NCBI RefSeq assembly: GCF_001542625.1
Contig: NZ_CP016279.1
Coordinates: 7,254,001-7,318,000, forward strand
Direction of reading: 5' to 3'
DNA length: 64,000 nt
Source of the DNA: Streptomyces griseochromogenes
GTDB taxonomy: Bacteria; Actinomycetota; Actinomycetes; Streptomycetales; Streptomycetaceae
Shown here: positions 46,090 to 64,000 of the stretch, in pieces
How the letters are laid out: each line of letters opens with the position of its first letter
Numbering within the stretch: position 1 is the first letter of the stretch
Made by a program: the position numbers and the translations under genes
The notes under the pieces: model-generated
The model's input: the letters and a program-made list of their open reading frames with translations, nothing else
The model's database searches: none
Told to the model about the DNA's origin: nothing

Positions 46090-47766
46090 TCAGTTGTCGG
46101 GTTCGACGAGGGAGGGGCGGGCGGGAGCCGTCTCCTCGGCTGTGGCCGGAGCCTTCGTGGTGCCGCCGCCGGGCAGGAACGCGCCGACCGCGGCGGCGCC
46201 CAGCAGCGTCACACCGGCCGCCACCAACGAGGTGACGCGTACCGCGGAGACGAAGGCGTCGATCGCGTGGGAGGCCAGGGGCAGACCACGGGGGCCGAGG
46301 CCCGCGGCGACGGTGAGGGCGCCGGTGATGGACTGCTCGGCGGCCGGGCGGAGGGCAGGGGGCAACGCGGCCAGGTGAGGGTGGACGCCGTCGCGGTAGC
46401 GGGCGGACAGCACCGAGCCGAGGACCGCGACGCCCAGGGCGCCTCCCACCTGGCGCAACGCGTTGATCAAGGCTGCTCCGGTGCCCGCGGTCCGCTCGGG
46501 CATGGCGGACATCGCGACGGCGGTCCCGGCGGGCATCACATAGCCCATGGCGCTGCCCATGAGGAAGAAGAGGAGTTCGATCTGCCACAGCGGCGATCGC
46601 TGGTCCAGCACGCTGACGCCGAGGAAGGTGACGGCGGTGAGCCCAAGGCCGGCGGTGCACACCGCCCGCGCACCGAAGCGGCGGGCCAGCACGGTGCTGT
46701 GCGGTGAGCAGGCGAGTTGGGCGACGGCGAGCGGGAGCAGGCAGCAACCGGCCTGGAGAGGCGAGTACCCGCGAACGCTCTGCAGATAGAAGACGAGGTA
46801 GAAGGATGAGCCGAGCAGACCGAAGAAGATCACGGCGATCGCGCCGACCGCCCCGGTGAACCGGGCGTCGCGGAAGCAGCCCAGGTCCATGGCGGGGTGC
46901 GGGGTGCGCCGTTCCCACCGGACGAAGCCCGCCATCAGGACCAGGCCGGCCAGGACGTTCCCCCAGACCGGCGCGGCACTCCAACGGGCGAGTTCGCCGC
47001 CCTTGATGATGCCGAACACGAGCAGGCCGAGGCCAGCGACGCAGAGGAGCACGCCGAGCGGGTCGAGACGGCCGGGCGCCGGGTCGGCGGACTCCGGTAC
47101 GACTCCGGCGATGGCCACCGTGCCGAGCAGCACGATGGGGAGGTTGATCAGGAAGATCGAGCCCCACCAGAAGTGCTCCAGCAGCAGTCCGCCGGTGACC
47201 GGACCGATCGCCACCGCGAGTCCCGCCGAGGCGGCCCACAGGCCGATCGCCTTCGGGCGTTCTTCGGGCCGGAACACCTGGGTGATGATCGCCAGGGTGG
47301 CCGGGACCACCAGCGCCGCCCCGATGCCCATGCCGGCGCGCCCGGCGATCAGTTCGGCGGTGCTGTGCGCGTAGGCGGAGGCCGCGGAGAAGAGGCCGAA
47401 GACGAACAGACCGGCCAGCAGCGTCCGCTTCCGGCCGAACCTGTCCGCGACGAGACCGGCCGTGATCAACATGGTGGCGAAGACCAGCGTGTAGGAGTCG
47501 ACCGCCCATTGGAGAGAGCTGGGTGAGGCACCGAGTCCGTCGGGCGCCGGCAGAGCGAGCACCCGCAGCGCCACGCTGATGATGGAGGTGTCGAGGACGA
47601 CCAGGACCAGGCTGACGACCAGCGAGGCGAGGATCCACCAGCGGCGCGGATCGGAGCCGGTCTCGCGCGCTTGCGGCGGCAGGGATTCTCGCTCGTCTTC
47701 CGGCACGGGGGCTCCGCATCTCGATTGAAGGACTTTCGCTTTCGCCGGACGCGTCGCCCCGGGCAT
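46090..47766 (-). CDS. DHA2-family MFS drug/metabolite exporter
   Basis: This 558-residue protein has about fourteen membrane segments in the EmrB/QacA pattern. It shows SLVVSLVLVVLDTSIISVAL in helix 1, GLVADRFGRKRTLLAGL as the loop signature and GPVTGGLLLEHFWWGSIFLI in helix 5. The start at 47766 has an acidic, charged N-terminal segment of about 40 residues. It is transcribed divergently from the biosynthetic operon that begins at 48017 and so is the likely self-resistance or export gene for that pathway. Confidence 0.88.
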   Translation of the reverse strand: MPGATRPAKAKVLQSRCGAPVPEDERESLPPQARETGSDPRRWWILASLVVSLVLVVLDTSIISVALRVLALPAPDGLGASPSSLQWAVDSYTLVFATMLITAGLVADRFGRKRTLLAGLFVFGLFSAASAYAHSTAELIAGRAGMGIGAALVVPATLAIITQVFRPEERPKAIGLWAASAGLAVAIGPVTGGLLLEHFWWGSIFLINLPIVLLGTVAIAGVVPESADPAPGRLDPLGVLLCVAGLGLLVFGIIKGGELARWSAAPVWGNVLAGLVLMAGFVRWERRTPHPAMDLGCFRDARFTGAVGAIAVIFFGLLGSSFYLVFYLQSVRGYSPLQAGCCLLPLAVAQLACSPHSTVLARRFGARAVCTAGLGLTAVTFLGVSVLDQRSPLWQIELLFFLMGSAMGYVMPAGTAVAMSAMPERTAGTGAALINALRQVGGALGVAVLGSVLSARYRDGVHPHLAALPPALRPAAEQSITGALTVAAGLGPRGLPLASHAIDAFVSAVRVTSLVAAGVTLLGAAAVGAFLPGGGTTKAPATAEETAPARPSLVEPDN

Positions 47767-48016
47767 GGCCCGAACGTGCGCCGCGATCAGGCTACTTTCA
47801 CCGAGGAGTTCCGCAGAGCGCCAGTTCCACTATCGAGTGATCGGGAAAGCGCCACACTATACGGTCGGTCGATACTGACAATCCATTCGTCGTATTAGCC
47901 GATCATGGCATGGCTAATTTTGTTCATTTGACATTGCATTGTCGACGTTGGAAGCATTCGCGTGCCGTCGCCACCACACCGTTGCGCCCGGCACCCGCGC
48001 CGATCGGAGGCCGACC
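47767..48016. other. Divergent promoter region of exporter and biosynthetic operon
   Basis: This 250-base stretch is the most AT-rich in the area. It should carry both promoters. A loose dyad TATACGGTCGGTCGATA near 47857-47873 could be a regulator site, but the arms are only three bases. No regulator gene lies in the visible part of the cluster. Confidence 0.4.
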
Positions 48017-48511
48017 CTGAATCACCCGCCCATTGCAGAGAATTCGCAGGCAGGGCCGTCACTGGAGGACATCCGCAGGGCCGTCGACGACATGGTGCCG
48101 TTCCAGAGACTCGTCGGCACCGAACTCGTGGAACTCACCGCCGAACGCGCCGTGGCCCGCCTGCCGGAAACACCCGAGACCCTCAACCATGTCGGAACTC
48201 AGCACGCTGCCGCGCTTTTCCTGGTCGCCGAGTCCGCTGCCGGAGCCGCTCTCGCCGGCGCTCTGCGCGAACGCGTGCTCGAAACGGTCTTCGTGCTCCG
48301 CGATTCCCGGATCGAATACCATCGCAAAGCCCTCGGCCGGATCCAGGCAGTGGCCGTGATCCCGGACGGCGAAGTGCCCGTCGGATTCGCCGAGTTTCCG
48401 AACGGCGAGCGATTCGAGGCGCTGGTGAGATCCGAGCTGTACGACGGCGAAGGGCAGCGCGTGGCCGAGGCCGCGTTCCGCTACCACTGCCGTATCCGCG
48501 CCACCCACTGA
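48017..48511 (+). CDS. HotDog thioesterase-like protein (DUF4442/YiiD-C type)
   Basis: This protein of about 164 residues has a HotDog fold. It shows FQRLVGTELVELTAERAVAR, the active-region helix LNHVGTQHAAALFLVAESAAG, and a C-terminal strand region ending EAAFRYHCRIRATH. The frame reaches TTG at 47939, but the only start with a proper ribosome site is a CTG at 48017 (GGAGG six bases before it); ATG 48092 would remove family sequence. It opens the biosynthetic operon and could release or trim an acyl chain from CoA or a carrier protein. Its substrate is unknown. Confidence 0.65.
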   Translation: MNHPPIAENSQAGPSLEDIRRAVDDMVPFQRLVGTELVELTAERAVARLPETPETLNHVGTQHAAALFLVAESAAGAALAGALRERVLETVFVLRDSRIEYHRKALGRIQAVAVIPDGEVPVGFAEFPNGERFEALVRSELYDGEGQRVAEAAFRYHCRIRATH

Positions 48512-48546
48512 GCAAGCGCCCCGAAGCGAAAGGAACAGCCCCTCCC

Positions 48547-49911
48547 GTGACTGCCCTGGAGAGGTACGACCTCCCGGTCTCGGCGATCCCGAAGCGCTGG
48601 TACAACGTGCTCCCCGATCTGCCGCGCGGCCTCGACGACTACCTGCACCCGGTGACCCGGGAACCGGTCGGCCAGGAGTTCATGGAACGGCTGCTGCCCA
48701 AGGCACTGGTCGCTCAGGAGACCTCGACGGACCGGTGGATCGCCATCCCCGAGGAGGTCCGCGCCGCCTACCGGCTCTGGCGTCCGACGCCGTTGTACCG
48801 GGCCACCGCGCTGGAACGGCACCTGGACACCCCGGCGGAGATCTACTTCAAGTACGAGGGGTCGAGCCCCTCCGGCTCGCACAAGCTCAACTCCGCGCTG
48901 GCGCAGGCGTACTACGCCGGTCTGGAAGGCGTCGACCGGCTGGTCACGGACACCGGGGCCGGCCAATGGGGCAGCGCGCTCTCCATGGCCTGCAGCCTGT
49001 TCGGGATCAAGGCGCTGGTCTACATGGTCCGGGCGAGTTTCCAGAGCAAGCCCTACCGGCGGCATCTGATGGAGACCTTCGGCCAGCAGGTGCTGCCGAG
49101 TCCCGGGCCGCACACCGACTTCGGTCGCGCGCTGCTGGCCGACACGCCCGATCACCCCGGCTCCGAGGCCACCGCCGTGAGCGAGGCGCTGGAGACCGTG
49201 CGCCTCAACGCGGGCGACCGGTTCTCGATGGGCGCCTTCGCCAATCACGTGCTGCTGCATCAGACGGTGATCGGACTGGAGACCCGCGAGCAGCTTGAGG
49301 AGATCGGCAAGCAGCCCGACTTCCTGGTCGCGTCGGTGGGCTGCGGCAGCAACCTGGGCGGCTTCGTGTTCCCGTTCGTCGGCGACAAGCTCGCGGGGGC
49401 GCAGATCGGCATCCTGGCCGCCGAGCCGGCCGCCTGCCCGACGCTGACCGCGGGCGAGTACCGCTACGACTTCGCGGACGCCGGCGGCCTGGGCCCGATG
49501 ACACGGACGTACACGCTGGGGCACGAGTTCGTGCCGCCGCCGATCCACTCAGGCGGCCTGCGCTACCACGGCGCCGCGCCGCTCGTCGGGCTCGCGCGCC
49601 ACGAGGGTCTGCTGGATGCCCGCGCGTACGCCCAGAAGGAGGTCTTCGAGGCGGGCACGCTCTTCGCCCGGCTGCACGGGCTGCTGCCCGCCCCGGAGAC
49701 CGCGCACACCGTCCGGGCCACGATCGAGCTGGCCGAGGAGTGCCGCCGGCAGCGGCGCCGGGCCGTGATCGTCTTCTGCTACAGCGGGCACGGGCTGCTC
49801 GATCTGGGCGCCTACGGCTCGTTCAACGCGGGCGAGATGGCGGACACGGAGCCGTACGAGTGCACGCTCGCGGCGGGCGATCCGGCGCTCGCAGGGCTGA
49901 CCGGCCGGTGA
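48547..49911 (+). CDS. TrpB2-like PLP enzyme
   Basis: This 454-residue fold-type II PLP enzyme is of the TrpB2 group (tryptophan synthase beta-like). Lys113 in SSPSGSHKLNSALAQAY should hold PLP. TDTGAGQWGSALSMAC matches the substrate and aminoacrylate site, and CGSNLGGF the phosphate-binding glycine-rich loop. It ends with CYSGHGLLDLGAYGSF. The housekeeping enzyme would be next to trpA; here it sits in a biosynthetic operon, so I infer a dedicated beta-substitution or amino-acid-forming reaction, possibly from serine. It starts at GTG 48547 with AGGA upstream. Confidence 0.85.
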   Translation: MTALERYDLPVSAIPKRWYNVLPDLPRGLDDYLHPVTREPVGQEFMERLLPKALVAQETSTDRWIAIPEEVRAAYRLWRPTPLYRATALERHLDTPAEIYFKYEGSSPSGSHKLNSALAQAYYAGLEGVDRLVTDTGAGQWGSALSMACSLFGIKALVYMVRASFQSKPYRRHLMETFGQQVLPSPGPHTDFGRALLADTPDHPGSEATAVSEALETVRLNAGDRFSMGAFANHVLLHQTVIGLETREQLEEIGKQPDFLVASVGCGSNLGGFVFPFVGDKLAGAQIGILAAEPAACPTLTAGEYRYDFADAGGLGPMTRTYTLGHEFVPPPIHSGGLRYHGAAPLVGLARHEGLLDARAYAQKEVFEAGTLFARLHGLLPAPETAHTVRATIELAEECRRQRRRAVIVFCYSGHGLLDLGAYGSFNAGEMADTEPYECTLAAGDPALAGLTGR

Positions 49912-51509
49912 GCGCCATGTACTCCTGCCGGCAGTACATCGGCGGCCAGGACCGCTCCGGCACAGGCTGGACCTACTGTCTGGACGCCCGCGCCTTCCTG
50001 GCCGACCCGCGCGCCTCGTTCACCCTCAAGCGCAGGCTGGAGCTGACGGGCGGTGACAGCCCCGAGGGCGACACCACCGGGATCGTCGGCCGGGTCGCGC
50101 TCAGCAGCCCGCAGGACGTGACCGACGCACTGCAGGCGGCACGCGCGGCCCGCCGCGAGTGGGCCCGCACCGACCTGGACACCCGGATGGAGCTCGGCCC
50201 GCGCCTGCACGCGGCCCTGACCGCCCGGTACGACGACCTGCTCGGCATCCTGATCTCCGAAGGCCACCCGCGCCGACTGGCCGAGTGGGAGATCGCCGGC
50301 ATGCTGATGGGCAGCAGCGCCGAGACGGTGGCGTTCTACCGCAGCCAGCTGGAGCAGCGGTTCGACGGTCCCGGCCACTCCTTGGCGCTGCTGCGCAAGC
50401 CCGACGGGGTGGTCTGCCTCAACCCGCCGCAGAACGCGGCGGCCGCCAACTCCTTCCTGGGCACCGCCGCGCTCGGTGCCGGCAACACGCTGGTGGTCAA
50501 GGCACCGCGGACCGCACCGCTGGGCGTCGCCTTCATCTACCGGGAGCTGGTCGCACCGGTCCTGGACGAGCTGGGCGCACCGCCGGGAACCGTCAACCTG
50601 GTCTCCGGCGCGACCCGGCCGATGCTTCGCCAGTGGCTGACCAGCCCGTACGTCGACGACATCATGTTCTTCGGCGACAGCGACGTCGGCCTGGAGTTCG
50701 GCGAGAAGTGCGTCGCCCACGGCAAGAAGCCGGTGCTCGAACTGTCCGGCAACGACTGCCTGGTGGTGTGGAACGACGCCGATCCGGACGGCGCCGTGGA
50801 GGCCCTGCTGGAGTGCTTCTACGGCTCCGGGCAGATCTGCATGGTGCCCAAGTGCGCGATCGTCCACCCGGACATCGCCGATCGGCTGCTCGCCGGGCTG
50901 ACCGCCCGGTGCCGCGCGCTGCGGCCCGGATACCCCGACGACCCGGAGGTGCTGCTGAGCCCGGTGCTGAAGATCGACCGGTTCCACGAGGTGCTGGCCG
51001 ACGCGGAGCGGCACGGCTGCCAGGTCCTCTGCGGCGGCGAGCGACTGGACGTCGACGGACGCCCCTCCCTGACCGGGACGTTCCTCGAACCCACGGTGGT
51101 ACGGGTGGACGGGCTGCGTGATGCGCGCCGGGTCCGGGCCGTGCGCGAGGAGACCTTCTTCCCGCTGCTCGCCGTGGTGGTCCCCGACGAGCGGGACGAG
51201 GGCGAACTGCTGGACTCTGTCGTCGAGTTTGTCAACGAGAACGAGTACGGGCTGCGCAATTCCCTCTGGTCCGCCGACGACAAGGTGATCGACACGTTCA
51301 GCCGCGAGGTCGTCAACGCCGGACTGCTGAAGGTCAACGACTCGCACATCGGGTTCGTCCCCTACCTCGGCACGCACGGCGGCACCGGCCGCACCGGCGG
51401 CCCGTTCGGGGAACTCAACTACCCGATCCTGCGCACCTCCCGTCTGCAGGGCGTGGCCGTGGCCAAGCGCACGCCGGACACGGCCCAGGGAGCGCCGTGC
51501 GGGGGCTGA
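49908..51509 (+). CDS. Aldehyde dehydrogenase 1
   Basis: This NAD(P)-dependent aldehyde dehydrogenase of about 533 residues has catalytic Cys311 in FYGSGQICMVPKC and general base Glu278 in PVLELSGNDCLV. The cofactor segment LGAGNTLVVKAPRTAPLG and the closing segment GGTGRTGGPFGELNYP are also present. The first 60 residues are an unusual extension. The start is GTG 49908 (overlapping the previous stop) or ATG 49917. It oxidises an aldehyde to an acid, or possibly forms a thioester, in the pathway; the substrate is unknown. Confidence 0.85.
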   Translation: MSAMYSCRQYIGGQDRSGTGWTYCLDARAFLADPRASFTLKRRLELTGGDSPEGDTTGIVGRVALSSPQDVTDALQAARAARREWARTDLDTRMELGPRLHAALTARYDDLLGILISEGHPRRLAEWEIAGMLMGSSAETVAFYRSQLEQRFDGPGHSLALLRKPDGVVCLNPPQNAAAANSFLGTAALGAGNTLVVKAPRTAPLGVAFIYRELVAPVLDELGAPPGTVNLVSGATRPMLRQWLTSPYVDDIMFFGDSDVGLEFGEKCVAHGKKPVLELSGNDCLVVWNDADPDGAVEALLECFYGSGQICMVPKCAIVHPDIADRLLAGLTARCRALRPGYPDDPEVLLSPVLKIDRFHEVLADAERHGCQVLCGGERLDVDGRPSLTGTFLEPTVVRVDGLRDARRVRAVREETFFPLLAVVVPDERDEGELLDSVVEFVNENEYGLRNSLWSADDKVIDTFSREVVNAGLLKVNDSHIGFVPYLGTHGGTGRTGGPFGELNYPILRTSRLQGVAVAKRTPDTAQGAPCGG

Positions 51510-52309
51510 GCACACGGGTCCGCGGCCGCCGGGTCCTGGTCACCGGCGCGTCCGGCGCGATCGGCCGCCAGGTGGCGATCCTGCTCGGCGCGGCCGGTGC
51601 CGAACTGTCCCTGCTCGGACGCGACCGCCGGGCGCTGGACGAGACCGCGCGGCTCGTACCGAGCGGCGCTCCGGTCCGCGTCTTCCCGGTGGACCTCACC
51701 GCGGCCGACGAACTCACCTTCCTCACCGAGGAGTTGGCCAAGCAGGGCGGAGTCGACATCCTGGTCAACAACGCGGGCCGGTCGATCCGGCGCGGCGCCG
51801 CCCTGGCGGTCGACCGGCCGCACGACTACCGCCGGACCATGGCCGTCAACTACTTCGGCGCGGTCGATCTGACGCTACGACTGCTCCCCGGGATGCGCGA
51901 GCGCGGGGGCGGCCACATCGTCAACGTCGCCACGATCGGGCTGCAGCTCGGCATGGCACGGTTCACCGCCTACAACCCGTCGAAGGCGGCGATCGAGGCG
52001 TTCGGGCAGTCGCTGGCTCCCGAACTCAGGCGCGAGAGGATCGCGGTGAGCACGGTCCACCTGCCGCTGGTCCGTACCCGGATGAGCGCCCCCACCACGG
52101 CGTTCGCCAAGCTGCCCGCGCTCACCCCGGAGCAGGCGGCCCGGATGGTCTGCACGGCTCTGGTGACCCGCAGGCCCCGCGTCTCCACACCGCTCGGCAC
52201 GCTGGGCGAGCTGCTCGGTGTGGCGGCGCCCCGGCTGCGGCTGGCGTTCGCCGCCCTGGAGTACCGCTGTCTGCCCGAGTCCCCCGGCGCCCTGGGAGCG
52301 GACCGATGA
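51497..52309 (+). CDS. Short-chain dehydrogenase/reductase
   Basis: This 270-residue classical SDR has the cofactor loop VTGASGAIGRQ at residues 15-25, ILVNNAGRSIRRG as the structural NNAG segment, and catalytic Tyr159 and Lys163 in AYNPSKAAIEAF. The usual serine in the active site is replaced by Thr in NVATIG. The GTG start lies 13 bases inside the end of the aldehyde dehydrogenase gene. It resembles the reductases that pair with acyl-CoA ligases in acyl-to-aldehyde steps. Confidence 0.87.
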   Translation: MRGLSTRVRGRRVLVTGASGAIGRQVAILLGAAGAELSLLGRDRRALDETARLVPSGAPVRVFPVDLTAADELTFLTEELAKQGGVDILVNNAGRSIRRGAALAVDRPHDYRRTMAVNYFGAVDLTLRLLPGMRERGGGHIVNVATIGLQLGMARFTAYNPSKAAIEAFGQSLAPELRRERIAVSTVHLPLVRTRMSAPTTAFAKLPALTPEQAARMVCTALVTRRPRVSTPLGTLGELLGVAAPRLRLAFAALEYRCLPESPGALGADR

Positions 52310-54072
52310 CGGCGCCCACGGCCGCCGGTGTCCCTGCCGGGCACCTCGCGCGGGCGCTGGACGCCCCGACCGTGGTCGACGCGTTCGAGCTGACGGCCGA
52401 CGTCTGCGCCGAGCTGCCGGCCCTGCGCACGACGGGCGGCGAGGTCCACACCTGGGCGCAGTACCGGGCCGCCGCCCGCGGCTGCGCCGCCGGCCTTGCC
52501 CGCCTCGGTCTGCGGGCCGGCGACACGATCGGCCTGCTGCTCGGCAACCGGCCGGAGTTCCACGTCCTGGACGCGGCCGCCATGACCCTCGGGGTGACCA
52601 CCTGCTCGTTCCACCTCACCTCCTGCGACGAGGAGTTGCGCCGTCTCGTGGCCGACTCCCGGGCCGCTGTACTGGTCTGCGCGGAGACCGAGCGCGGCCG
52701 CGCCGAACGGCTGCTCGGTGAGTGCCCGGGGCTGCGGGAGCTGGTCCTGGTGGGCGAGACCGACGGGCTCGCCGCGCTGCTCGACCCGGGAGCGGCGATG
52801 CCACGGCGGCACCGGCCACGTCCGCAGGATCCGCTGACCGTGGTCTACACCTCGGGAACCAGCGGTCCGCCCAAGGGAGTCGAGCTCAGCCACGCGGCGG
52901 TCCGGGCGGCCGGTCATGCCTTTCTGGCGCGGGTGCCCCTGCCGGCCGGCGCGCGGCTGGTCTCGTATCTGCCGATGGCGCACATCGCCGAGCGCTGCGC
53001 CTCGCACTACCTGCCGATGGTCCTGGGCGCCGACGTCACCTGCTGCGAGGCACCCGATCGGCTCTTCGAGGTGATGCCCCGGGTCCGGCCTCACTGGCTG
53101 TTCTCCGTACCCCGGATCTGGGAGAAGCTGCACGTCCGGCTGCTCACCGAACTCGACCGGGCACCGGCGGAGTTCCGGTACGGCGCGCTGCGGGCGCTGG
53201 AGCTCGGTGAGGCACTGAGCGCGGGCAAGCACGGTGTGACGGACGAGTACCGGCGCCTGGAGCAGTCCCATCTCGCGCCGGTGCGGGCACTGCTCGGGCT
53301 GGACGCGGCCCGCTTCGTCCACGTCGGCGCGGCCCCCGTGCGCGAGGAGACGATGCGCTTCCTGTGTGCGCTCGGCCTGCCGATGGGCGAGATCTGGGGC
53401 ATGACCGAACTGTGCGCTGCGGCCTGCGTGACCGTACCGGGCGCGCACCGCCCCGGCTGGATCGGCCCGCCGCTGCCGGAGGTGGAGGTGCGCACCGCGT
53501 CCGACGGTGAGGTGCTGGTCCGCGGCCGTACCGTGATGGCCGGCTACCGGGGGCGACCGCGGGAGACCGCGGCCGCGTTCGGCCCGCAGGGCTGGCTGCG
53601 CACCGGTGACCTCGGCGAGCTGGACGCCGACGGATCACTGCGGATCACCGGCCGCAAGAAGGACCTGATCGTCACCGGCTACGGCAAGAATCTCGCACCG
53701 GCCCGGATCGAGGCACGGGTCGCGGCGGAGGAACCGCTGATCGACCAGATCTGCGTCATCGGCGACGGGCGCCCGTACCTCGTCGCACTGGTCACGCTGA
53801 GCACCATGGGCGAGGGGAATGCGGCAGACCGCGTCGAGCGGGTCCGCACGGGCCTGGCACGCGCGAACCGCCGACTGTCGCGGCCGGAACGGGTCCTGCG
53901 GTTCGCCGTGGTGGACGAGGACTGGACGCCGCCCTCCGGACTGGTGACCCCGACGCTGAAGCCACGGCGCCGGCAGATTCTGGCCCGGTACCGCGACCTG
54001 GTCGACGACCTGTACGCGGGCGGCGGCCTGACTCCGCGGGAGGACGGCGACGGGGGCTCCGATGAGGACTGA
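52306..54072 (+). CDS. Long-chain acyl-CoA/ACP synthetase (AMP-forming)
   Basis: This 588-residue adenylate-forming enzyme has the P-loop VYTSGTSGPPKGVELSH (Tyr181 onwards), the FadD15-type EIWGMTELCAAAC, and the C-terminal GWLRTGDLGELDADGSLRITGRKKD with the final GYGKNLAP. It joins a fatty or other carboxylic acid to CoA or a carrier protein. The four-base overlap with the SDR suggests that the two act in sequence. The long linker and hydrophobic pocket fit a long-chain substrate, but this is an inference. Confidence 0.87.
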   Translation: MTAPTAAGVPAGHLARALDAPTVVDAFELTADVCAELPALRTTGGEVHTWAQYRAAARGCAAGLARLGLRAGDTIGLLLGNRPEFHVLDAAAMTLGVTTCSFHLTSCDEELRRLVADSRAAVLVCAETERGRAERLLGECPGLRELVLVGETDGLAALLDPGAAMPRRHRPRPQDPLTVVYTSGTSGPPKGVELSHAAVRAAGHAFLARVPLPAGARLVSYLPMAHIAERCASHYLPMVLGADVTCCEAPDRLFEVMPRVRPHWLFSVPRIWEKLHVRLLTELDRAPAEFRYGALRALELGEALSAGKHGVTDEYRRLEQSHLAPVRALLGLDAARFVHVGAAPVREETMRFLCALGLPMGEIWGMTELCAAACVTVPGAHRPGWIGPPLPEVEVRTASDGEVLVRGRTVMAGYRGRPRETAAAFGPQGWLRTGDLGELDADGSLRITGRKKDLIVTGYGKNLAPARIEARVAAEEPLIDQICVIGDGRPYLVALVTLSTMGEGNAADRVERVRTGLARANRRLSRPERVLRFAVVDEDWTPPSGLVTPTLKPRRRQILARYRDLVDDLYAGGGLTPREDGDGGSDED

Positions 54073-54075
54073 CCG

Positions 54076-55632
54076 ATGACACCGTCGACGAGCCGGGCGC
54101 CGCTGGTCCGGACAACCGCCCGTCTCGCCGCGCAGCTGTCCGGCGGCGGACCGGAACTCCGCCCGCGGGCGCCGTTCACACTGGACGTGATCGCCCGTCT
54201 GCCGGGCGCCACGGCCGAGGACGTGGCCCGCGCCTTCGAACGGGCCCGCGCGGCCCAGCCCGACTGGGCCGCCAGGCCGGCCCCCCACCGCGCCCGGATC
54301 GCCGGCCGGCTGCACGGACTGCTGCTCGGCCGGCGGCACGAGGCCCTCGACCTGCTCCAGTGGGAGACCGGCAAGGCGCGGGTGCACGCCTTCGACGAGG
54401 TGATCGACGCCGCCGGTGTGTGCCGCTACTACGCCCGCCGGGCCCCCGGGCTGCTGGCCCCGCGCCGCCGGGCCGGGGTGCTGCCACCGCTGACGTCGGT
54501 CCGCGAGCTGCGCCATCCCAAGGGCGTGGTCGCCGTGATCACTCCGTGGAACTACCCGCTCAGCCTGACCGTGACCGACGTCGTCCCGGCGCTGCTGGCG
54601 GGCAACGCCGTCGTCCAGAAGGCCGATACCCAGACCGCCTGCACCACGCTGTGGGCGCGCGAGCAGTGTGTGCGGGCGGGGCTGCCCGCCGAGCTGTGGC
54701 AGATCGTGGTCGGCGAACCCGCCGAACTGGGCCCCGCGCTGCTGGCCGGGGCCGACCATCTGGCCTTCACCGGTTCCACCGCGGCGGGCCGGGAGCTGGG
54801 CGGTCTGGCGGGCGAGCGGCTGATCGGCTGCATGCTGGAGCTGGGCGGCAAGAACCCGCTGCTGGTGCTGGCGGACGCCGACCTCGACCGGGCGGCGGCC
54901 GGTGCCGTGCGGGCGTGCTTCTCCAGTGCCGGGCAGCTGTGCATGTCGGCGGAGCGGATCCTGGTGGACCAGCGGGTGCACGACCGCTTCGTGGCACGCT
55001 TCCTCCGCCGGGTCGCCGCCCTGCGGCTGTCCGCCGGTTTCGACTTCGGTGGCGACCTCGGCTCGCTCACCTCGCACCGCCAGCTCGACCGGGTGCGCAC
55101 TCATGTCACGGACGCGCTGGCCAAGGGTGCCCGGCTGCTGTGCGGCGGGCGCGAACGCCCGGACATCGGCCCGCTGTTCTACGCACCGACCGTGCTGGCC
55201 GGGGTGACCCCGGAGATGACCCTGTACCGGGAGGAGACCTTCGGCCCGGTGGTCCGCGTAGGCGCCTTCCGGGACGAGGAGGAAGCCGTGGCGCTCGCCA
55301 ACGACAGCCCGTACGGCCTGAACGCCTCGGTGTGGAGCCGCAGCCCGGCCCGGGCGCGAGCACTCGGCACGCGACTGCGGGTCGGCGCCGTCAACATCAA
55401 CGAGGGTTTCCGGGCGGCCTATGTCTCGTACGACGCGCCCAGCGGCGGCCGGCAGGAGTCCGGCATCGGTCATCGGCACGGGGCCACGGGCCTGCTGCAG
55501 TACACCGACTGTCAGGTGCTGGCCCGGACGCGGGCGAACTTCTTCGACCCGCGGCCGGGGACCGGCGCCGAGCGCCACACCGAACTGCTGACCACACTGG
55601 CCAGGACGATGACGAGGCTGGGCCTGGGATGA
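54076..55632 (+). CDS. Aldehyde dehydrogenase 2 (succinic-semialdehyde-like)
   Basis: This 518-residue enzyme has catalytic Cys289 in SAGQLCMSAERI, base Glu255 in MLELGGKNPLL, and the conserved HPKGVVAVITPWNYPLS. It belongs to a different subgroup from aldehyde dehydrogenase 1, closer to semialdehyde dehydrogenases. It starts four bases after the ligase stop and its stop overlaps the NRPS start. Two distinct aldehyde dehydrogenases in one operon imply two aldehydes on the route, or an aldehyde cycle between acid and alcohol states. Confidence 0.86.
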   Translation: MTPSTSRAPLVRTTARLAAQLSGGGPELRPRAPFTLDVIARLPGATAEDVARAFERARAAQPDWAARPAPHRARIAGRLHGLLLGRRHEALDLLQWETGKARVHAFDEVIDAAGVCRYYARRAPGLLAPRRRAGVLPPLTSVRELRHPKGVVAVITPWNYPLSLTVTDVVPALLAGNAVVQKADTQTACTTLWAREQCVRAGLPAELWQIVVGEPAELGPALLAGADHLAFTGSTAAGRELGGLAGERLIGCMLELGGKNPLLVLADADLDRAAAGAVRACFSSAGQLCMSAERILVDQRVHDRFVARFLRRVAALRLSAGFDFGGDLGSLTSHRQLDRVRTHVTDALAKGARLLCGGRERPDIGPLFYAPTVLAGVTPEMTLYREETFGPVVRVGAFRDEEEAVALANDSPYGLNASVWSRSPARARALGTRLRVGAVNINEGFRAAYVSYDAPSGGRQESGIGHRHGATGLLQYTDCQVLARTRANFFDPRPGTGAERHTELLTTLARTMTRLGLG

Positions 55633-58600
55633 CCGACGTCAGGAACGCGCCCCTGCCGCCCCCGACGCGCTTCGGCTGCGTGCTGGTCGGCGAGAGTGCC
55701 ATGGTGACCGCCTGCGCAGAGGTGCTCCTGGAGCGCGGCCACCGGGTGCGCGGCGTGGTGTCGCCCGATCCCGAGATCCGGACCTGGGCGGAGCGGGCCG
55801 GGCTGGCCGCCACCGGATTCGGCCCGGATCTGGTGGCGTGGCTGGCGGCGGAGCCGTTCGACCACCTGTTCAGCGTCGTCAACCTGCGGCTGCTGCCTCC
55901 CGAGGTGCTCGAACTGCCGCGGGGACTGGCGGTCAACTTCCACGACGGTCCGCTCCCCCGCCACGCGGGCCGGTACGCCACCGCCTGGGCGATCCTGGCG
56001 GGCGAGCGCATGCACGGCGTCAGCTGGCACCTGATGACGGACCAGCCCGACCGGGGAGATGTGCTGGTCGGCCGCGAGGTGCCCGTCGAAGCGGCCGAAA
56101 CGAGCGGCACGCTCAACCTGAAGTGCCTGGCGGCGGGGATCGACGCGTTCGGGGAACTGGTCCACGCGCTGGAGCGGGGCACCGTCCGCCGCCGCGCGCA
56201 GGATCCGGCCGGGCGCGGCTACCACGGCCGGTTCGACCGGCCGCCCGGCGCGGGATTCCTACGCTGGGACAGGCCGGCCGAGCAGCTGGCCGCGGCGGTG
56301 CGCGCGGCCGACTTCGGGCCGCACGCCAATGCCTTCGGCACCGCGAAGGCGCTGCTGGGCGGCGAGCCGGTGGTGGTGCGGGAGTTGACGCCGCTGCCGG
56401 AGCCGGCGCGGGGCGTGTGCGGCACGGTCCTGGCGGTCGGCTCGGACGCCGGTTCCGAGGAACGAAGGGACATGGAGCCCGAAGGAACGGTCACGGTCGT
56501 CGCGGACGGGCGGCCGGTGCGGCTGTCCGGTCTGCGCACGGTGCGTGGCGAGCCGCTGACCGCGGCCGAGTTGACGGCCCGCGGAGTGCGGCCCGGCAGC
56601 CGCCTCGCGTCCCCCGGCGCAGTGCTGCTGGCGGCCGCCGGGCGTGCCGAGGCGGCCGGCCTGCGCGCCGAGCCGTTCTGGCTCCGTCGGCTCGCGGGCC
56701 TGACCCCGGCCGACCTGCCGTTTCGCGCGCCGGGCCGCCCTGTGACCGCCACCGTGGTGCCGGTACCGGCCCGGCTGCCCGGTGCCGAGGGCGAGGAGGA
56801 GCGACGCACGTGGCTGCTGACCGCGTTGCTCGCGTTCCTGGTCCGGCTCGGTGCGGCACCCGGCACCGACGTGCGGTTGCGCCTGCCGGGTCCGGGCACC
56901 GGCCACCCCGCGGTCGACGCGCTGTACGCCGACTGGATCCCGCTGCGGCTGCCGGAGCTCGGCACCCGGAGCCAGACCGAGCTGCACGCCGAGACGGCCG
57001 GCCTTCTCCGGGCGGCACGGGAGCGCGGCCCCTTTCCGCACGACCTGTGGACCCGCTGCCCGAAACTGCGTGATCGGCCCTGCCGACTGCCGATCGCTCT
57101 GGAGCTCGCCGACGACGGACCGATGGAGCTCCCGCTCGGCAGCGCCCTGCTCATCAGGGTGGGGAAGGACCGTTGCGAGTGGCTGGGTGCCGAGGGGCCG
57201 CTCGCCGGATACGCGGCCGCGTTCCTGAACGAGCTCACCGTGGTACCGCGGCCCGCGGAACTCCCGCTGGGCACCGAGGAGGTCCGGCGGACGGTGGCCC
57301 GCTGGAACGAGACGGCGACCGGCATCCCGCAGGACGCCGGTGTACACCGCCTGATCGCCCGGCAGGCCCGGCTGCGGGCCGATGCCCCGGCCGTGGTCTG
57401 TGGCCGACAGGTGCTCACCTACGGTGACTTGGACCGGCGGTCGAGCGAGCTGGCCGGTCGGCTGCGCTCGCGCGGCGCGGGTCCGGGGCGGCGGGTCGGG
57501 GTGTATCTCGGGCGTACGCCCGAACTCGTCGTGGCGCTGCTCGCGGTGCTGAAGTCCGGCGCCGCGTACGTGCCGCTGGACCCGTTGTATCCGCCTGCCC
57601 GCATCGCCGGGATGATCGAGGACGCGGCGCCGGCCCTGCTCGTCACCGGCCCCGGTCCGGCACCCGGCCTGCCGCTGACGGGAGTCGAGCTGGTGACGCC
57701 GCAGCCGCTCCCGCCCGCCTACGACGAGGACGGCATCGGTGTGCCGGGCGACAGCGACGCCTACGTCATCTACACCTCCGGTTCCACCGGTCGGCCCAAG
57801 GGCGTACGGATCACTCACCGCTCGCTCACCAACCTGGTCCGCGCGATGGCCGCGAACCCCGGCTTCACCTCGCGGGACCGGCTGCTGGCGGTCACCACGG
57901 TCTGCTTCGACATCGCGGCCCTGGAGCTGTTCGTTCCGCTGGCCACCGGCGGACAGGTCGAACTGGCCCCGGCCGAGGTCGCGGCGGACGGCTTCCAGCT
58001 GCGCGAGCTGCTCGAACGCAGCCGCCCGACCGTCCTGCAGGCCACCCCGGCCACCTGGCGGATGCTGCTGGAGGCGGGCTGGTCCGGGCAGCCGCTGCGG
58101 ATGCTCTGCGGCGGCGAGGCGCTGCCCGCCGACCTCGCCGAGGAGCTGCTCCGCCGAGGTGACGGACTCTGGAACCTGTACGGACCCACCGAGACCACGA
58201 TCTGGTCCTCCGTCACACGGGTGCGACCCGGTGAACGGCCGCTGCTCGGGCCGCCGATCGCCAACACCAGGTTCCATGTGCTGGACGCCGCACAGCGGCC
58301 GTTGCCCCCGGGCGTGCCGGGCGAGCTGTACATCGGCGGTGCCGGCGTCGCGGCCGGCTACCACGACCGGCCGGAGCTGACGGCGGAGCGTTTCGTTCAG
58401 GTGCCGCACGTGCCGTACCGGCTCTACCGCACCGGCGACCTGGTGCGGCAGCTGACGGACGGCCGCCTCGAATACCTCGGCCGCGCCGACGAACAGCTCA
58501 AGCTGCACGGCTACCGCATCGAGCCGGCCGAGATCGAGGCAGCGCTGCGCGATCACCCCGCCGTGTGCGAGGCGGTGGCCGTGCTGCGCGAGGAACGGCT

Positions 58601-59147
58601 GGTGGCCTACCTGGTGCCGCGTGGTACTCCGGCCCCGGCCGCAGTGTTGCGGGCCCACCTGGCAGCCGCCGGGCTGCCCGACTACCTGATCCCGTCGGCC
58701 TTCGTACCACTGGACCGGATTCCGCGTACCGCCAACGGAAAGACCGACCGTGCGGCGCTGCCGGCACCGCCCGCGCCGGAGATCGCCGCGCCCCTCGACG
58801 CCGACCGCACCGAGCGGGTGATCGCCGAGATCTGGCAGCAGGTGCTGGGGCTCGACCGGGTCGGGCTCGACGACAACTTCTTCGAAGTGGGCGGCACCTC
58901 GTTGCTGCTCATGCGCGTCATGGCCCGCCTGCGGACTCGGGCGCTGCTCCCGCTGAGCCGCGTGGAGATGTTCTCCCACCCGACGGTCCGTTCGCTGGCC
59001 AGACGTCTGGCCCTCCCCGCGGCACCACGGCCCACACCCGATGTGCCACGTCCGGCCCCCGGCGTACCACGGCAGTCGGCCGACGCGGCACGTCCGGTGG
59101 CCACGCGCGCCGGGCTCGGCGAGCTGCGTCGGCGCCGCGGTCGCTGA
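55629..59147 (+). CDS. Formyltransferase - vestigial condensation - adenylation - PCP NRPS
   Basis: This 1172-residue NRPS loading module runs as follows. (1) A formyltransferase domain at about residues 1-300 has Asn103 and His105 in VNFHDGPLP and Asp141 in QPDRGDVL, the formyl-transfer site. (2) A segment of about 200 residues (roughly 370-570) looks like the C-terminal half of a condensation domain without the HHxxxDG active site. (3) The adenylation domain has YTSGSTGRPKG near 715, NLYGPTETT, and Lys1038 in ANGKTDR; its ten-residue pocket reads D-I-L-Q-L-G-L-I-W-K, the pattern I associate with glycine. (4) The carrier protein has the phosphopantetheine site at Ser1091 (GGTSLL). It probably makes N-formylglycyl-PCP as a starter, as in formylglycine-primed oxazole polyketides. 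Substrate identity is an inference from the pocket. Confidence 0.87.
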   Translation: MTDVRNAPLPPPTRFGCVLVGESAMVTACAEVLLERGHRVRGVVSPDPEIRTWAERAGLAATGFGPDLVAWLAAEPFDHLFSVVNLRLLPPEVLELPRGLAVNFHDGPLPRHAGRYATAWAILAGERMHGVSWHLMTDQPDRGDVLVGREVPVEAAETSGTLNLKCLAAGIDAFGELVHALERGTVRRRAQDPAGRGYHGRFDRPPGAGFLRWDRPAEQLAAAVRAADFGPHANAFGTAKALLGGEPVVVRELTPLPEPARGVCGTVLAVGSDAGSEERRDMEPEGTVTVVADGRPVRLSGLRTVRGEPLTAAELTARGVRPGSRLASPGAVLLAAAGRAEAAGLRAEPFWLRRLAGLTPADLPFRAPGRPVTATVVPVPARLPGAEGEEERRTWLLTALLAFLVRLGAAPGTDVRLRLPGPGTGHPAVDALYADWIPLRLPELGTRSQTELHAETAGLLRAARERGPFPHDLWTRCPKLRDRPCRLPIALELADDGPMELPLGSALLIRVGKDRCEWLGAEGPLAGYAAAFLNELTVVPRPAELPLGTEEVRRTVARWNETATGIPQDAGVHRLIARQARLRADAPAVVCGRQVLTYGDLDRRSSELAGRLRSRGAGPGRRVGVYLGRTPELVVALLAVLKSGAAYVPLDPLYPPARIAGMIEDAAPALLVTGPGPAPGLPLTGVELVTPQPLPPAYDEDGIGVPGDSDAYVIYTSGSTGRPKGVRITHRSLTNLVRAMAANPGFTSRDRLLAVTTVCFDIAALELFVPLATGGQVELAPAEVAADGFQLRELLERSRPTVLQATPATWRMLLEAGWSGQPLRMLCGGEALPADLAEELLRRGDGLWNLYGPTETTIWSSVTRVRPGERPLLGPPIANTRFHVLDAAQRPLPPGVPGELYIGGAGVAAGYHDRPELTAERFVQVPHVPYRLYRTGDLVRQLTDGRLEYLGRADEQLKLHGYRIEPAEIEAALRDHPAVCEAVAVLREERLVAYLVPRGTPAPAAVLRAHLAAAGLPDYLIPSAFVPLDRIPRTANGKTDRAALPAPPAPEIAAPLDADRTERVIAEIWQQVLGLDRVGLDDNFFEVGGTSLLLMRVMARLRTRALLPLSRVEMFSHPTVRSLARRLALPAAPRPTPDVPRPAPGVPRQSADAARPVATRAGLGELRRRRGR

Positions 59148-59216
59148 CCGGCTCCAGACAGACCGGCCGCTCGTGGTGCCACGGCTCCGCGAGCGGCCCA
59201 TGAAAGGACTTCCCCC

Positions 59217-60364
59217 ATGGCCCTGTGCACCATCTGCGCGTTGAAGGACAGCCACCCCGGCGTGACGCTCGGGGACGACGGCGTGTGCAGTCTGTGCCGG
59301 CTCGATGCCGCCGGTGATCTCCTGGCCAACTTCGCCTACACGAACCGGGTGTTCGAGGAGTTCGCCCGCAGCGGTCCGAATCCGCACGGCGACTACGACT
59401 GCCTGTTCATGTACAGCGGCGGCAAGGACAGCACCTTTCTGCTGGACAAGTTCGTCAACGAGGACGGCAGACGCGTGCTCTCCTACACCTTCGACGTGCC
59501 GTTCGAGAGCACGCACGCCGCGGAGAACATCCGGCTGGCCCGGGAGCGGATTCCGGCGACGTTCGTCATCGACTCGGACGACGACGGCATCAAGACGGTG
59601 CTCCGGGAGGTCCTCAACCGGCCGGCCGCGAAGCCCGGCACGTACCTGGACGAGAAGCTGCCGTGCGTCTCCTGCCGCAGCTTCTTCGTGATCCGGGCGA
59701 TCCGCCACGCCTTCCGGCACCGGATCCCGTACATCGTGCTGTGCGCGGATCCGCAGCAGATCCTGACCATGGAGTCCGATGTGCGCGAGGTGGTGCGCGG
59801 CTTCTACCGGGCCTTCGGTGAACGGCTGCTCTCCGACGAGTTCCGCGCCGACCTGGAGACGCTGCTCTTCGCCGAGGACGACGAACTGCCGCGGATCGTC
59901 TTCCCGTTCGTGGCGAACCGCTACGCGTACGACCCGGAGCGGATGGTCGCCGAACTCACGGCGAAGGGGCTGTACGCCTCATCGCCGCTGGAGACGCACT
60001 GCACGCTCTTCCCGCTGCTCAACTACTACTCGTACCTGAACTGGGACTGCATGTTCTACAAGCTCAACGCGGCCAGCCACCGGCGTTCGGTGCGGCGCAA
60101 CGAGAACCACGAGCGCTCGACGTTCAGCATCGCCTTCCCTCGGGCCGCGGACCTGCCGGGGATCGAGGAGCGGCTGAAACGCGTGGTCCTGGACCTCGCC
60201 GCCGGGCGCGGCGACGAGGCCGAGCAAAAGCGTGAACTCAAGGGAATCTTCGGCGAGTTGGGGGCGAGCGCCGAGGCCGCCCGGTTTCTCGCGGGGGGCT
60301 TCCTCGGTATGCGCGCGACAGCGGCCGAACTCGGTGTCGAGCTGCGGACCGCCGAGGCGGCGGC

Positions 60365-60368
<4 letters not shown>
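59217..60368 (+). CDS. PP-loop ATPase of the AANH superfamily with cysteine pairs
   Basis: This 383-residue protein has a PP-loop in FMYSGGKDSTFLLDKF and an N-terminal CTICALK...GVCSLC pair of cysteine doublets, with another pair in KLPCVSCRSFF. The order resembles WbpG-type sugar amidotransferases and the thiolation or thioamide enzymes of the alpha-hydrolase superfamily. Such enzymes adenylate a carbonyl and replace its oxygen with nitrogen or sulfur. It lies between the NRPS and the PKS and its stop overlaps the PKS start, so it probably acts on the carrier-bound chain. It has no amidotransferase (HisH-like) partner in view. The chemistry (thioamide, amidine, or a ring from either) is not decided by the sequence. 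Confidence 0.82.
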
Positions 60369-62917
<2,549 letters not shown>

Positions 62918-63020
62918 GCGCGGGTGCCCGGGGACGACGGGCGTCATGGCGATGCGGCCGGGCCACGACGCTCCGGCCCCCGACCGACCGCCGCCTACGG
63001 CAACCACGCGAAGGAGAACG

Positions 63021-64000
63021 ATGACGCAGGTCCTGATCACCGGCGCGGGCGCCGTCTGCTGCCTCGGCACCGGTGTGCCCGCCATCTGGCAGGCCCTGCG
63101 TGCCGCACCGGCCGGCCGCCCACAGCGGGCCCCCGACCCCGGCGCCCGGATGCACCTGCCCCTGATCCACCTGGCCCCGATCGAGCCCGGCCCCGAGGGG
63201 CGTGCCACCCGGTTCGCCCTCGCCGCGGTGCGCGAGGCCGTCGCCGACGCCGGGCTGACGGCCGAGCAGTTGGCGAGTGCCTCGGTCGTCGTCGGCACCG
63301 GTGGCGGCGACGCCGACCGCTGGGAGCGCCCGCTGAATCCCCGTCGGCCGTACGCGCCCGCCTTCACCGTGGCCTCGACCGTCGCACACGCGATCGGCGC
63401 GCACGGTGCCGCGACCAGCGTCAGCAACGCCTGTGCGGCCGGGGGCTTCAGCCTCGGCATGGCGGCGGACCTGATTCGTGCGGGCGAGGCCGAGCTGGTG
63501 ATCGCCGGCGGCGCCGAGGCGTACAGCAGGGTGGCGCTCGGCTGCTTCAACCGCCTGGGCGCCGTCGACCCGGACGCCTGCAGGCCTTTCCACCGTGACC
63601 GGGCCGGTACGGTCTTCGGCGAGGGCGCGGCCGTACTGGTCCTGGAGTCGGCCGACCACGCCCGGCGGCGCGGCGCCGGGCGCCGCTACGCCACGCTGGC
63701 CGGCTCCGGCTGGAGCTGCGACGCGCATCACCTCACCGCACCCGCACCCGACGGCACGCAGATCCAGCGGGCGATGACCGAGGCGCTCGACGAGGCCGGT
63801 GTGCCGGCCTCGTCGGTGGGCTGTGTCGTGCCGCACGGCACCGGCACGCCGCAGGGCGACCTGGTGGAGAGCCAGGCGCTCGGCGCGGTCTTCGGCGACC
63901 GGCTGGCCCGGCTGCCCGTCTACAGCCTCAAGGCGCTGATCGGCCATACGGCCGGCGCCGCGGGTGCTCTCGGCGCACTCGCCGCCGCCCTCATCCTCGA
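63021..64000 (+). CDS. Free-standing ketosynthase, 3' end outside window
   Basis: This FabF-like stand-alone ketosynthase is cut by the right edge after 326 codons. Intact catalytic residues are Cys138 in VSNACAAGGF and His272 in VPHGTGTPQGD; the second His is in LIGHTAGAAG. The N terminus MTQVLITGAGAVCCLGTG is typical. The ATG has AAGGAG six bases upstream and lies 103 bases after the PKS stop. The cluster continues beyond the window. A condensing enzyme on a discrete carrier protein fits a type II-like or iterative step. Confidence 0.88.
   Translation, partial: MTQVLITGAGAVCCLGTGVPAIWQALRAAPAGRPQRAPDPGARMHLPLIHLAPIEPGPEGRATRFALAAVREAVADAGLTAEQLASASVVVGTGGGDADRWERPLNPRRPYAPAFTVASTVAHAIGAHGAATSVSNACAAGGFSLGMAADLIRAGEAELVIAGGAEAYSRVALGCFNRLGAVDPDACRPFHRDRAGTVFGEGAAVLVLESADHARRRGAGRRYATLAGSGWSCDAHHLTAPAPDGTQIQRAMTEALDEAGVPASSVGCVVPHGTGTPQGDLVESQALGAVFGDRLARLPVYSLKALIGHTAGAAGALGALAAALIL

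What the first reader, a model, noticed from the sequence alone, without database searches (positions are those of the whole stretch)
47767..64000. Unfamiliar NRPS/PKS hybrid cluster running off the right edge
Seen: HotDog protein, TrpB2-like enzyme, two aldehyde dehydrogenases, SDR, acyl ligase, formyltransferase-containing NRPS, PP-loop ATPase, KS-dead AT-ACP and a free KS, mostly with overlapping starts. Known: formylglycine starters occur in oxazole polyketides, and PP-loop enzymes make thioamides or amidines. Inferred: a small formylated, possibly sulfur- or nitrogen-substituted lipid-like product. I do not recognise this gene set as any described family.
Basis: partly seen in the sequence, partly recalled or inferred. 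Interest (0 to 1): 0.9.

Follow-up and report, generated by a model that had tools for sequence, protein, structure and literature searches.

The report
Oxazole-starter type II polyketide cluster
A Streptomyces gene cluster appears to build an oxazole ring from formylated glycine, as oxazolomycin-type pathways do, but passes it to small separate chain-extending enzymes and to an altered tryptophan-synthase-like enzyme, so it probably makes an unknown small oxazole compound.

Summary
The genes are real, intact and in one operon. The right flank, read from the same genome, adds the rest of the free KS, a KS-beta and an ACP, ending at 65469 in extended coordinates. The triad F-A-PCP NRPS, OzmP, KS-(dead AT)-ACP is the formylglycine-to-5-oxazole starter cassette of oxazolomycin, conglobatin and phthoxazolin; a thioamide or amidine is unlikely. 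New is what the cassette is joined to: a type II KS/KS-beta/ACP set in place of modular PKS, and a block TrpB2-ALDH-SDR-ligase-ALDH with HotDog and MFS. The whole set is syntenic in S. cellostaticus, S. cinnamoneus and S. caatingaensis; the flanking genes tested are not. The TrpB2-like enzyme belongs to a subfamily with Asp for the catalytic Glu, apparently linked to its ALDH on many other contigs (equal contig lengths; read directly in one, without oxazole genes). I read this as a new variant of a known kind, making a small oxazole-headed acyl product, perhaps with an amino-acid-derived end. The product is not known.

The parts
46090..47766 (-). MFS exporter, divergent; left end of the conserved block
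   Evidence: Pfam MFS_1 8.1e-50; syntenic at 71-91% in S. cellostaticus, S. caatingaensis, S. cinnamoneus
47939..48511 (+). HotDog protein (DUF4442, thioesterase-like); true start uncertain, homologues align from about residue 21-27
   Evidence: PF14539 3e-19; 57-77% in the three relatives; closest solved chain by sequence 1yoc, a hypothetical protein
48547..49911 (+). TrpB2-like PLP enzyme, Asp in place of the catalytic Glu, GCGSN in place of GGGSN
   Evidence: PRK12391 626.8 bits (cutoff 366) and TIGR01415 576.3 (cutoff 518.85); alignment with three solved TrpB chains; residues
49908..51509 (+). ALDH1, aldehyde dehydrogenase paired with the TrpB2-like gene
   Evidence: PF00171 6e-63; Cys and Glu present; adjacent to TrpB2-Asp in one genome outside this cluster, further linkage from equal contig lengths
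51497..52309 (+). SDR; nearest model the C-terminal part of PRK07201-type SDR proteins (below its cutoff)
   Evidence: YxxxK present in 4 of 4, window included
52306..54072 (+). Acyl-CoA/acyl ligase, FadD11-like (below that model's cutoff)
   Evidence: PF00501 1.5e-58; NF038343 393.3 bits, cutoff 950
54076..55632 (+). ALDH2, succinic semialdehyde dehydrogenase-like
   Evidence: PRK09407 711.6 bits, cutoff 521
55629..59147 (+). NRPS loading protein: formyltransferase - stretch without a Pfam hit - A (glycine-type residues) - PCP; OzmO/CongA/PtxE type
   Evidence: Pfam; LgrA alignment (weak, 18.2 bits, over the F domain); motifs shared with other OzmP clusters
59217..60368 (+). OzmP, PP-loop ATPase, proposed oxazole cyclodehydratase
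   Evidence: up to 95% to proteins named OzmP; SGGKDS invariant in 18 of 18 aligned; fold
60365..62917 (+). KS - inactive AT remnant - ACP; OzmQ/CongB/PtxC type
63021..64000 (+). KS-alpha, type II, active Cys (part inside the window; it ends at 64187 in extended coordinates; the longest frame starts at 62946). Beyond the window follow KS-beta (64184-65182, no active Cys, chain-length-factor-like) and ACP (65179-65469), the right end of the conserved block
   Evidence: KS-alpha. KS-beta: PF00109 4.5e-14, 6kxd_B tied for best solved match at 40.2 bits, LTSPRTAG in place of the Cys motif. ACP: PF00550 5.6e-12, DSL motif. Flank read from L009

Best explanation
A biosynthetic cluster for a small 5-substituted oxazole. 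Step 1 (domains shown): the NRPS loads glycine and formylates it on its PCP. Step 2 (inferred from ozm/cong/ptx): the KS of the 60365 protein joins it to a malonyl unit; malonate must come from an AT elsewhere, because the AT remnant is dead. Step 3 (inferred): OzmP uses ATP to activate an amide or keto oxygen and closes the ring, giving oxazol-5-yl-acetyl on a carrier protein. Step 4 (inferred): KS-alpha/KS-beta with the free ACP adds one or a few more C2 units, in place of the modular PKS of known oxazole pathways; reduction would need the SDR or fatty acid synthase enzymes. Step 5 (weakest): the HotDog protein releases the acid, the ligase re-activates it, and the TrpB2-like enzyme with ALDH1, the SDR and ALDH2 adds or remakes an amino-acid-derived end. 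The TrpB2-like enzyme forms an aminoacrylate on PLP as its relatives do, but with a nucleophile other than indole. The MFS protein exports the product. Confidence in steps 1-3 about 0.88, step 4 about 0.6, step 5 about 0.3.
For: OzmP identity and invariant SGGKDS; conserved order with oxazolomycin and conglobatin (passages of PMC4504003) and phthoxazolin (passages of PMC5764310). F-domain Asn/His/Asp align with LgrA; A-domain residues match the NRPSs of the 14 other OzmP loci that cover them, but for Leu/Met at one position. KS catalytic residues present, and no GHSxG in the AT remnant, in the window and in all 15 OzmQ-type proteins compared. The block MFS to ACP is syntenic in three named relatives, while none of 6 left and 5 right flanking genes tested is found there. 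G022 keeps NRPS-OzmP-PKS-KS'-KSbeta'-KSalpha-KSbeta-ACP and has no TrpB2, ALDH1 or SDR match in the whole genome at the cut-offs used, so the KS/KS-beta set goes with the oxazole cassette. KS-alpha and KS-beta are closest to type II/FabF-like KS and a KS/CLF pair. In the OzmP tree the marked block carriers fall in one supported 9-row group (100/98), two of whose rows have unknown context. TrpB2-Asp subfamily.
Against: No FabA-like dehydratase or AT is among the operon's genes and the one SDR is of another kind, so a reduced chain needs outside enzymes. S. cellostaticus, the nearest relative (OzmP 94-95%), has the KS-AT-ACP gene split between frames in its draft assembly: the gene may be dispensable or the assembly wrong. 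KS-alpha/KS-beta could act without elongating. OzmP's reaction is proposed but not shown in the passages I read. Nothing ties the TrpB2 block chemically to the oxazole; only synteny does. The block label needs two changes on the OzmP tree, not one. The product was not observed.
Confidence: 0.68

Rival explanations
1. The KS-alpha/KS-beta pair does not lengthen the chain iteratively but does one condensation plus cyclisation, or an acyl transfer, as AmcF-AmcG does in cispentacin.
For: KS-alpha scores 219.5 bits to the AmcF model, below its cutoff of 325; AmcF-AmcG does a single C2 elongation and a cyclisation (abstract and passages of PMC10698177); the AT and FabA-like dehydratases of a related type II cluster are missing.
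Against: KS-beta still matches ketoacyl-synt (4.5e-14) and a CLF, whereas AmcG is described as lacking functional motifs; the six related loci read by KS-alpha identity look like type II clusters with several KS genes, ACPs and SDRs.
Confidence: 0.25
2. One reading: the PP-loop enzyme puts sulfur or nitrogen into the product (thioamide, amidine).
For: The predicted fold resembles amidotransferase, nitrile synthetase (ArtA), YcfA and sulfur transferases; weak WbuX hit, 65.6 bits against a cutoff of 203.2.
Against: It is OzmP in sequence and in gene order. I saw no glutaminase or sulfur-carrier gene among the cluster proteins scanned.
Confidence: 0.05
3. Two neighbouring clusters: the TrpB2-ALDH2 half is a separate pathway that sits beside an oxazole pathway.
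For: TrpB2-Asp and ALDH1 occur together without the cassette in G896, probably a Frankia, and G022 has the cassette without the block.
Against: One tight operon with a 4-bp overlap across the border ALDH2/NRPS, and the same order in four genomes while the tested flanks differ.
Confidence: 0.1
4. It is the cluster of an already known oxazole metabolite whose paper is not in the open library.
For: Most subscription-journal papers are missing from the library, and several carriers are named collection strains.
Against: Searches for OzmP or oxazole with type II, chain length factor, tryptophan synthase or formyltransferase terms listed no such cluster (one search showed 15 of 499).
Confidence: 0.2

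Closest known systems
Oxazolomycin (ozm), conglobatin (cong) and phthoxazolin (ptx) clusters
   Same: F-A-PCP NRPS, OzmP and KS-(dead AT)-ACP side by side; glycine-type A domain; ATP-binding SGGKDS protein
   Different: No modular type I PKS follows; instead a free KS/KS-beta/ACP set and a TrpB2-ALDH-SDR-ligase-ALDH block
Highly reducing type II PKS clusters (KS/CLF of 6kxd, from ishigamide biosynthesis as recalled; polyene and cinnamoyl kind)
   Same: KS-alpha 54-57%, KS-beta 42-48%, ACP 46-53% by tblastn to six same-genus loci
   Different: No FabA-like dehydratases or AT; SDR of another kind; starter is an oxazole cassette
Cispentacin AmcF-AmcG
   Same: Type II KS with a non-catalytic partner in a small cluster with an ACP
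   Different: Below the AmcF model cutoff; KS-beta keeps KS homology; starter chemistry differs
TrpB2 tryptophan synthase
   Same: Above the curated cutoffs of two TrpB-like families; PLP lysine motif GSHKLN kept
   Different: Catalytic Glu is Asp, GGGSN is GCGSN; next to an ALDH; the genome has a separate TrpB (31% identical)

Membership tests
OzmP (oxazole cyclodehydratase candidate) | High full-length identity to named OzmP proteins | tested here: met
   Up to 95%, full length
OzmP (oxazole cyclodehydratase candidate) | SGGKDS ATP-binding motif | tested here: met
   Invariant in 18 of 18 aligned
OzmP (oxazole cyclodehydratase candidate) | ATP-dependent ring closure | not testable with these tools
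   Biochemistry needed; the conglobatin paper proposes it
5-oxazole polyketide clusters (ozm/cong/ptx) | F-A-PCP NRPS loading protein | tested here: met
   Domains, F-domain residues against LgrA, PCP Ser motif
5-oxazole polyketide clusters (ozm/cong/ptx) | Glycine specificity of the A domain | tested here: inconclusive
   Specificity residues as in 14 other OzmP loci; the reading as glycine is recalled, with PtxE's published prediction as support; not assayed
5-oxazole polyketide clusters (ozm/cong/ptx) | NRPS, OzmP and KS/ACP genes adjacent in this order | tested here: met
5-oxazole polyketide clusters (ozm/cong/ptx) | Modular type I PKS assembly line in the cluster | tested here: not met
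   Apart from the NRPS no frame called between 30000 and 102000 (extended) is longer than 958 aa, and that one is a LuxR-type regulator
Highly reducing type II PKS | KS plus non-catalytic KS-beta plus free ACP | tested here: met
Highly reducing type II PKS | FabA-like dehydratases and reductase in the cluster | tested here: not met
   No FabA-like hit among the operon proteins scanned, two in L157; the operon's one SDR is 27-30% identical to SDRs of the related loci, so its role as KR is open
TrpB2 tryptophan synthase | Curated family score | tested here: met
   626.8 bits against 366; 576.3 against 518.85
TrpB2 tryptophan synthase | Catalytic Glu that positions indole (E104 in plTrpB; E109 in Salmonella, recalled) | tested here: not met
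   Asp here and in 119 of the 120 nearest listed homologues, the window's own copy included
N-acetyl sugar amidotransferase (WbuX) | Curated family score | tested here: not met
   65.6 bits against 203.2
Cispentacin AmcF | Curated family score | tested here: not met
   219.5 bits against 325

The most novel reading that the evidence does not exclude
The TrpB2-Asp subfamily is an unrecognised PLP enzyme that makes a carbon-carbon bond between an aminoacrylate and a non-indole carbon nucleophile, with ALDH1 as its dedicated partner. In this cluster it was recruited to turn an oxazolyl-acyl chain, started by OzmP and lengthened by a type II KS/KS-beta pair, into a new oxazole-bearing amino acid.
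Probability: 0.2. Interest if true: 0.78.

Novelty: new variant of a known kind. Interest (0 to 1): 0.56.

Why it matters
OzmP's reaction was proposed in 2015, and the order of ring closure and elongation was left open in the passages of the two papers I read. In those described clusters the cassette feeds modular synthases. Here the same cassette sits in a compact cluster of small proteins, so the reaction could be rebuilt in vitro from a few proteins. It also points to a TrpB2-Asp/ALDH gene pair of unknown chemistry, with named hosts among actinobacteria, and predicts a small oxazole metabolite from named collection strains such as S. cinnamoneus JCM 4633 and S. cellostaticus DSM 40189.

Full report
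Location and completeness. The window is bases 7254001-7318000 of a single-contig 10.76 Mb genome. I read the right flank. The operon that starts at the HotDog gene continues past the window with the end of the free KS, a KS-beta and an ACP, and stops at 65469 in extended coordinates; the next gene called is a secreted trypsin-like protein. All twelve genes from HotDog to ACP are open without internal stops, seven of eleven junctions overlap, and none has a TTA codon.

What the core is. The PP-loop protein has no Pfam hit at the thresholds used and only a weak NCBIfam hit. In the 5.8-billion-protein search its best match is 95% identical, and many of the 120 listed carry the name OzmP. Two papers were seen as passages only. 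[quoted passage not shown] The phthoxazolin paper says the same for ptxE and ptxD and predicts a glycine-specific A domain. The window has the same triad. The F domain keeps the Asn, His and Asp that align with LgrA, in a weak match of 18.2 bits (Pfam Formyl_trans_N 9.8e-16). The A-domain specificity residues (DILQLGLIWK by my own mapping, recalled) match those of the 14 other loci that cover them, apart from Leu/Met at one position. In the window and the 15 other loci compared, the KS catalytic residues are present and the AT remnant has no GHSxG. So a formylglycine-derived 5-oxazole is the best-supported first product. The predicted fold of OzmP (mean pLDDT 80.7) is a PP-loop ATPase closest to N-acetyl sugar amidotransferase; this fits amide-oxygen activation but does not show it.

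What is new. In the described clusters the cassette leads into modular PKS. Here the next genes are a KS with active Cys, a KS-beta without it, and an ACP. The best solved matches of KS-alpha are 9s5h_B and 6kxd_A, then FabF-type enzymes; 6kxd_B ties for best with KS-beta, and calls 6KXD a KS-CLF complex. KS-alpha matched 38 of 392 same-genus genomes at E <= 1e-75; only the own genome, G018 and G022 exceed 62% identity. Six of the others, read in detail, look like type II clusters with several KS genes, ACP and SDR hits. In one of them (L157) eight proteins were scanned by Pfam, giving an AT, two FabA-like dehydratases and an SDR. The AT and FabA-like genes have no counterpart among the window's operon proteins.

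Distribution. I compared 26 loci, L012-L036 and L083: 12 and 14 of those 79. Of the 13 scan loci L024-L036, three (S. cellostaticus, S. cinnamoneus, S. caatingaensis) carry TrpB2, ALDH1, SDR, ligase, ALDH2, KS-alpha, KS-beta and ACP. Longer stretches show HotDog and MFS too, and none of the 11 flanking genes tested. S. cinnamoneus and S. caatingaensis have extra KS genes between the 60365-type gene and KS-alpha. G018 and S. cinnamoneus appear to be the same genome. OzmP itself matched 12 of 246 same-genus genomes, 8 strongly (own included) and 4 at E 1e-13 to 1e-17. In the OzmP tree the seven rows marked as block carriers sit in one 9-row group (100/98) with P0005 and P0010, whose context I did not read; the label needs two changes. 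Four of the seven were read directly (window, S. cellostaticus, S. caatingaensis, S. cinnamoneus). NPDC053079, NPDC053048 and S. griseocarneus were marked because OzmP and ALDH1 of the same strain lie on contigs of equal length. The sister pair is P0007 and G022 (80/87), and G022 has KS/KS-beta but no TrpB2 block. This suggests cassette first, then type II set, then TrpB2 block.

The TrpB2-like enzyme. It passes two TrpB-like family cutoffs and aligns along most of its length with three solved TrpB chains (399-432 bits), but has Asp where these have the Glu that, in passages on another TrpB (PMC11917138), stabilises the indole nitrogen. All three relatives share the Asp; of 18 other same-genus TrpB2-like proteins, 11 have Glu and 7 Gly. 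Of the 120 nearest listed homologues in the protein database, the own copy included, 119 have Asp, 1 Ala, and all 120 GCGSN. Named hosts include Solirubrobacteraceae, Thermoleophilaceae, Frankia, Amycolatopsis. Twenty-three contig lengths (one of them S. cellostaticus) are shared between this list and the ALDH1 list, against 0-1 for shifted lengths. In the one case outside the cluster that I could read (G896, a 53,827-base contig, the length of the Frankia contig), TrpB2-Asp (70%) and ALDH1 (57%) follow each other directly, with FAD enzymes and an AMP-ligase further on; the 27.8 kb read, part of it masked, gave no hit to OzmP, the NRPS or the KS genes. So a TrpB2-Asp/ALDH pair exists apart from this cluster and was probably recruited. 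The genome has its own separate TrpB.

Verdict. Steps 1-3 of the mechanism rest on close homology, step 4 on gene content, step 5 mostly on inference. No described cluster with this content turned up in the open library, which lacks most subscription papers.

Noticed in passing
G000:C1 about 5201469-5213094 and 5470381-5482000 (loci L153, L154): At least 11.6 kb holding an ALDH1 paralogue occurs twice in this genome, inverted, about 265 kb apart, 99.9% identical with no mismatches and 7 gaps; the match runs to the end of one fetched stretch. A recent inverted duplication or an assembly effect.
   Followed up: partly
L024:11149-13459 (S. cellostaticus): The KS-AT-ACP gene is split between two frames within the AT remnant in the draft assembly, so the ACP is out of frame with the KS; decay or sequencing error.
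   Followed up: partly
L025:13716 to about 15940, L026:13691 to about 15630, G022 contig C113 about 18.3-20.7 kb: Relatives carry an extra KS, followed by a KS-beta-like frame, missing from the window; by eye the KS-beta-like frame has Cys in S. caatingaensis but Ser in G022 at the active-site position (the S. cinnamoneus frame was seen only as open).
   Followed up: partly
L172, L177-L182: Seven same-genus TrpB2-like proteins have Gly at the catalytic Glu position and GAGSN, another possible repurposed group.
   Followed up: no
L157-L162: Type II polyene-like clusters with several KS/KS-beta genes and small uncharacterised proteins between them; the one small protein of this kind scanned (L157:13219-13662) had no Pfam hit.
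   Followed up: no
G896:C49 from about 35500 to the contig end (L209, L210): TrpB2-Asp/ALDH pair with FAD monooxygenase-like, FMO, AMP-ligase, amine oxidase, DUF3050 and MMPL genes nearby: possibly another uncharacterised pathway.
   Followed up: partly
L148: An ALDH1 relative (55%) beside NRPS and KS genes, with an aminotransferase-like and an acyl-CoA dehydrogenase-like protein (functions read by eye); L149 and L150 show similar NRPS/KS/ALDH hits.
   Followed up: no
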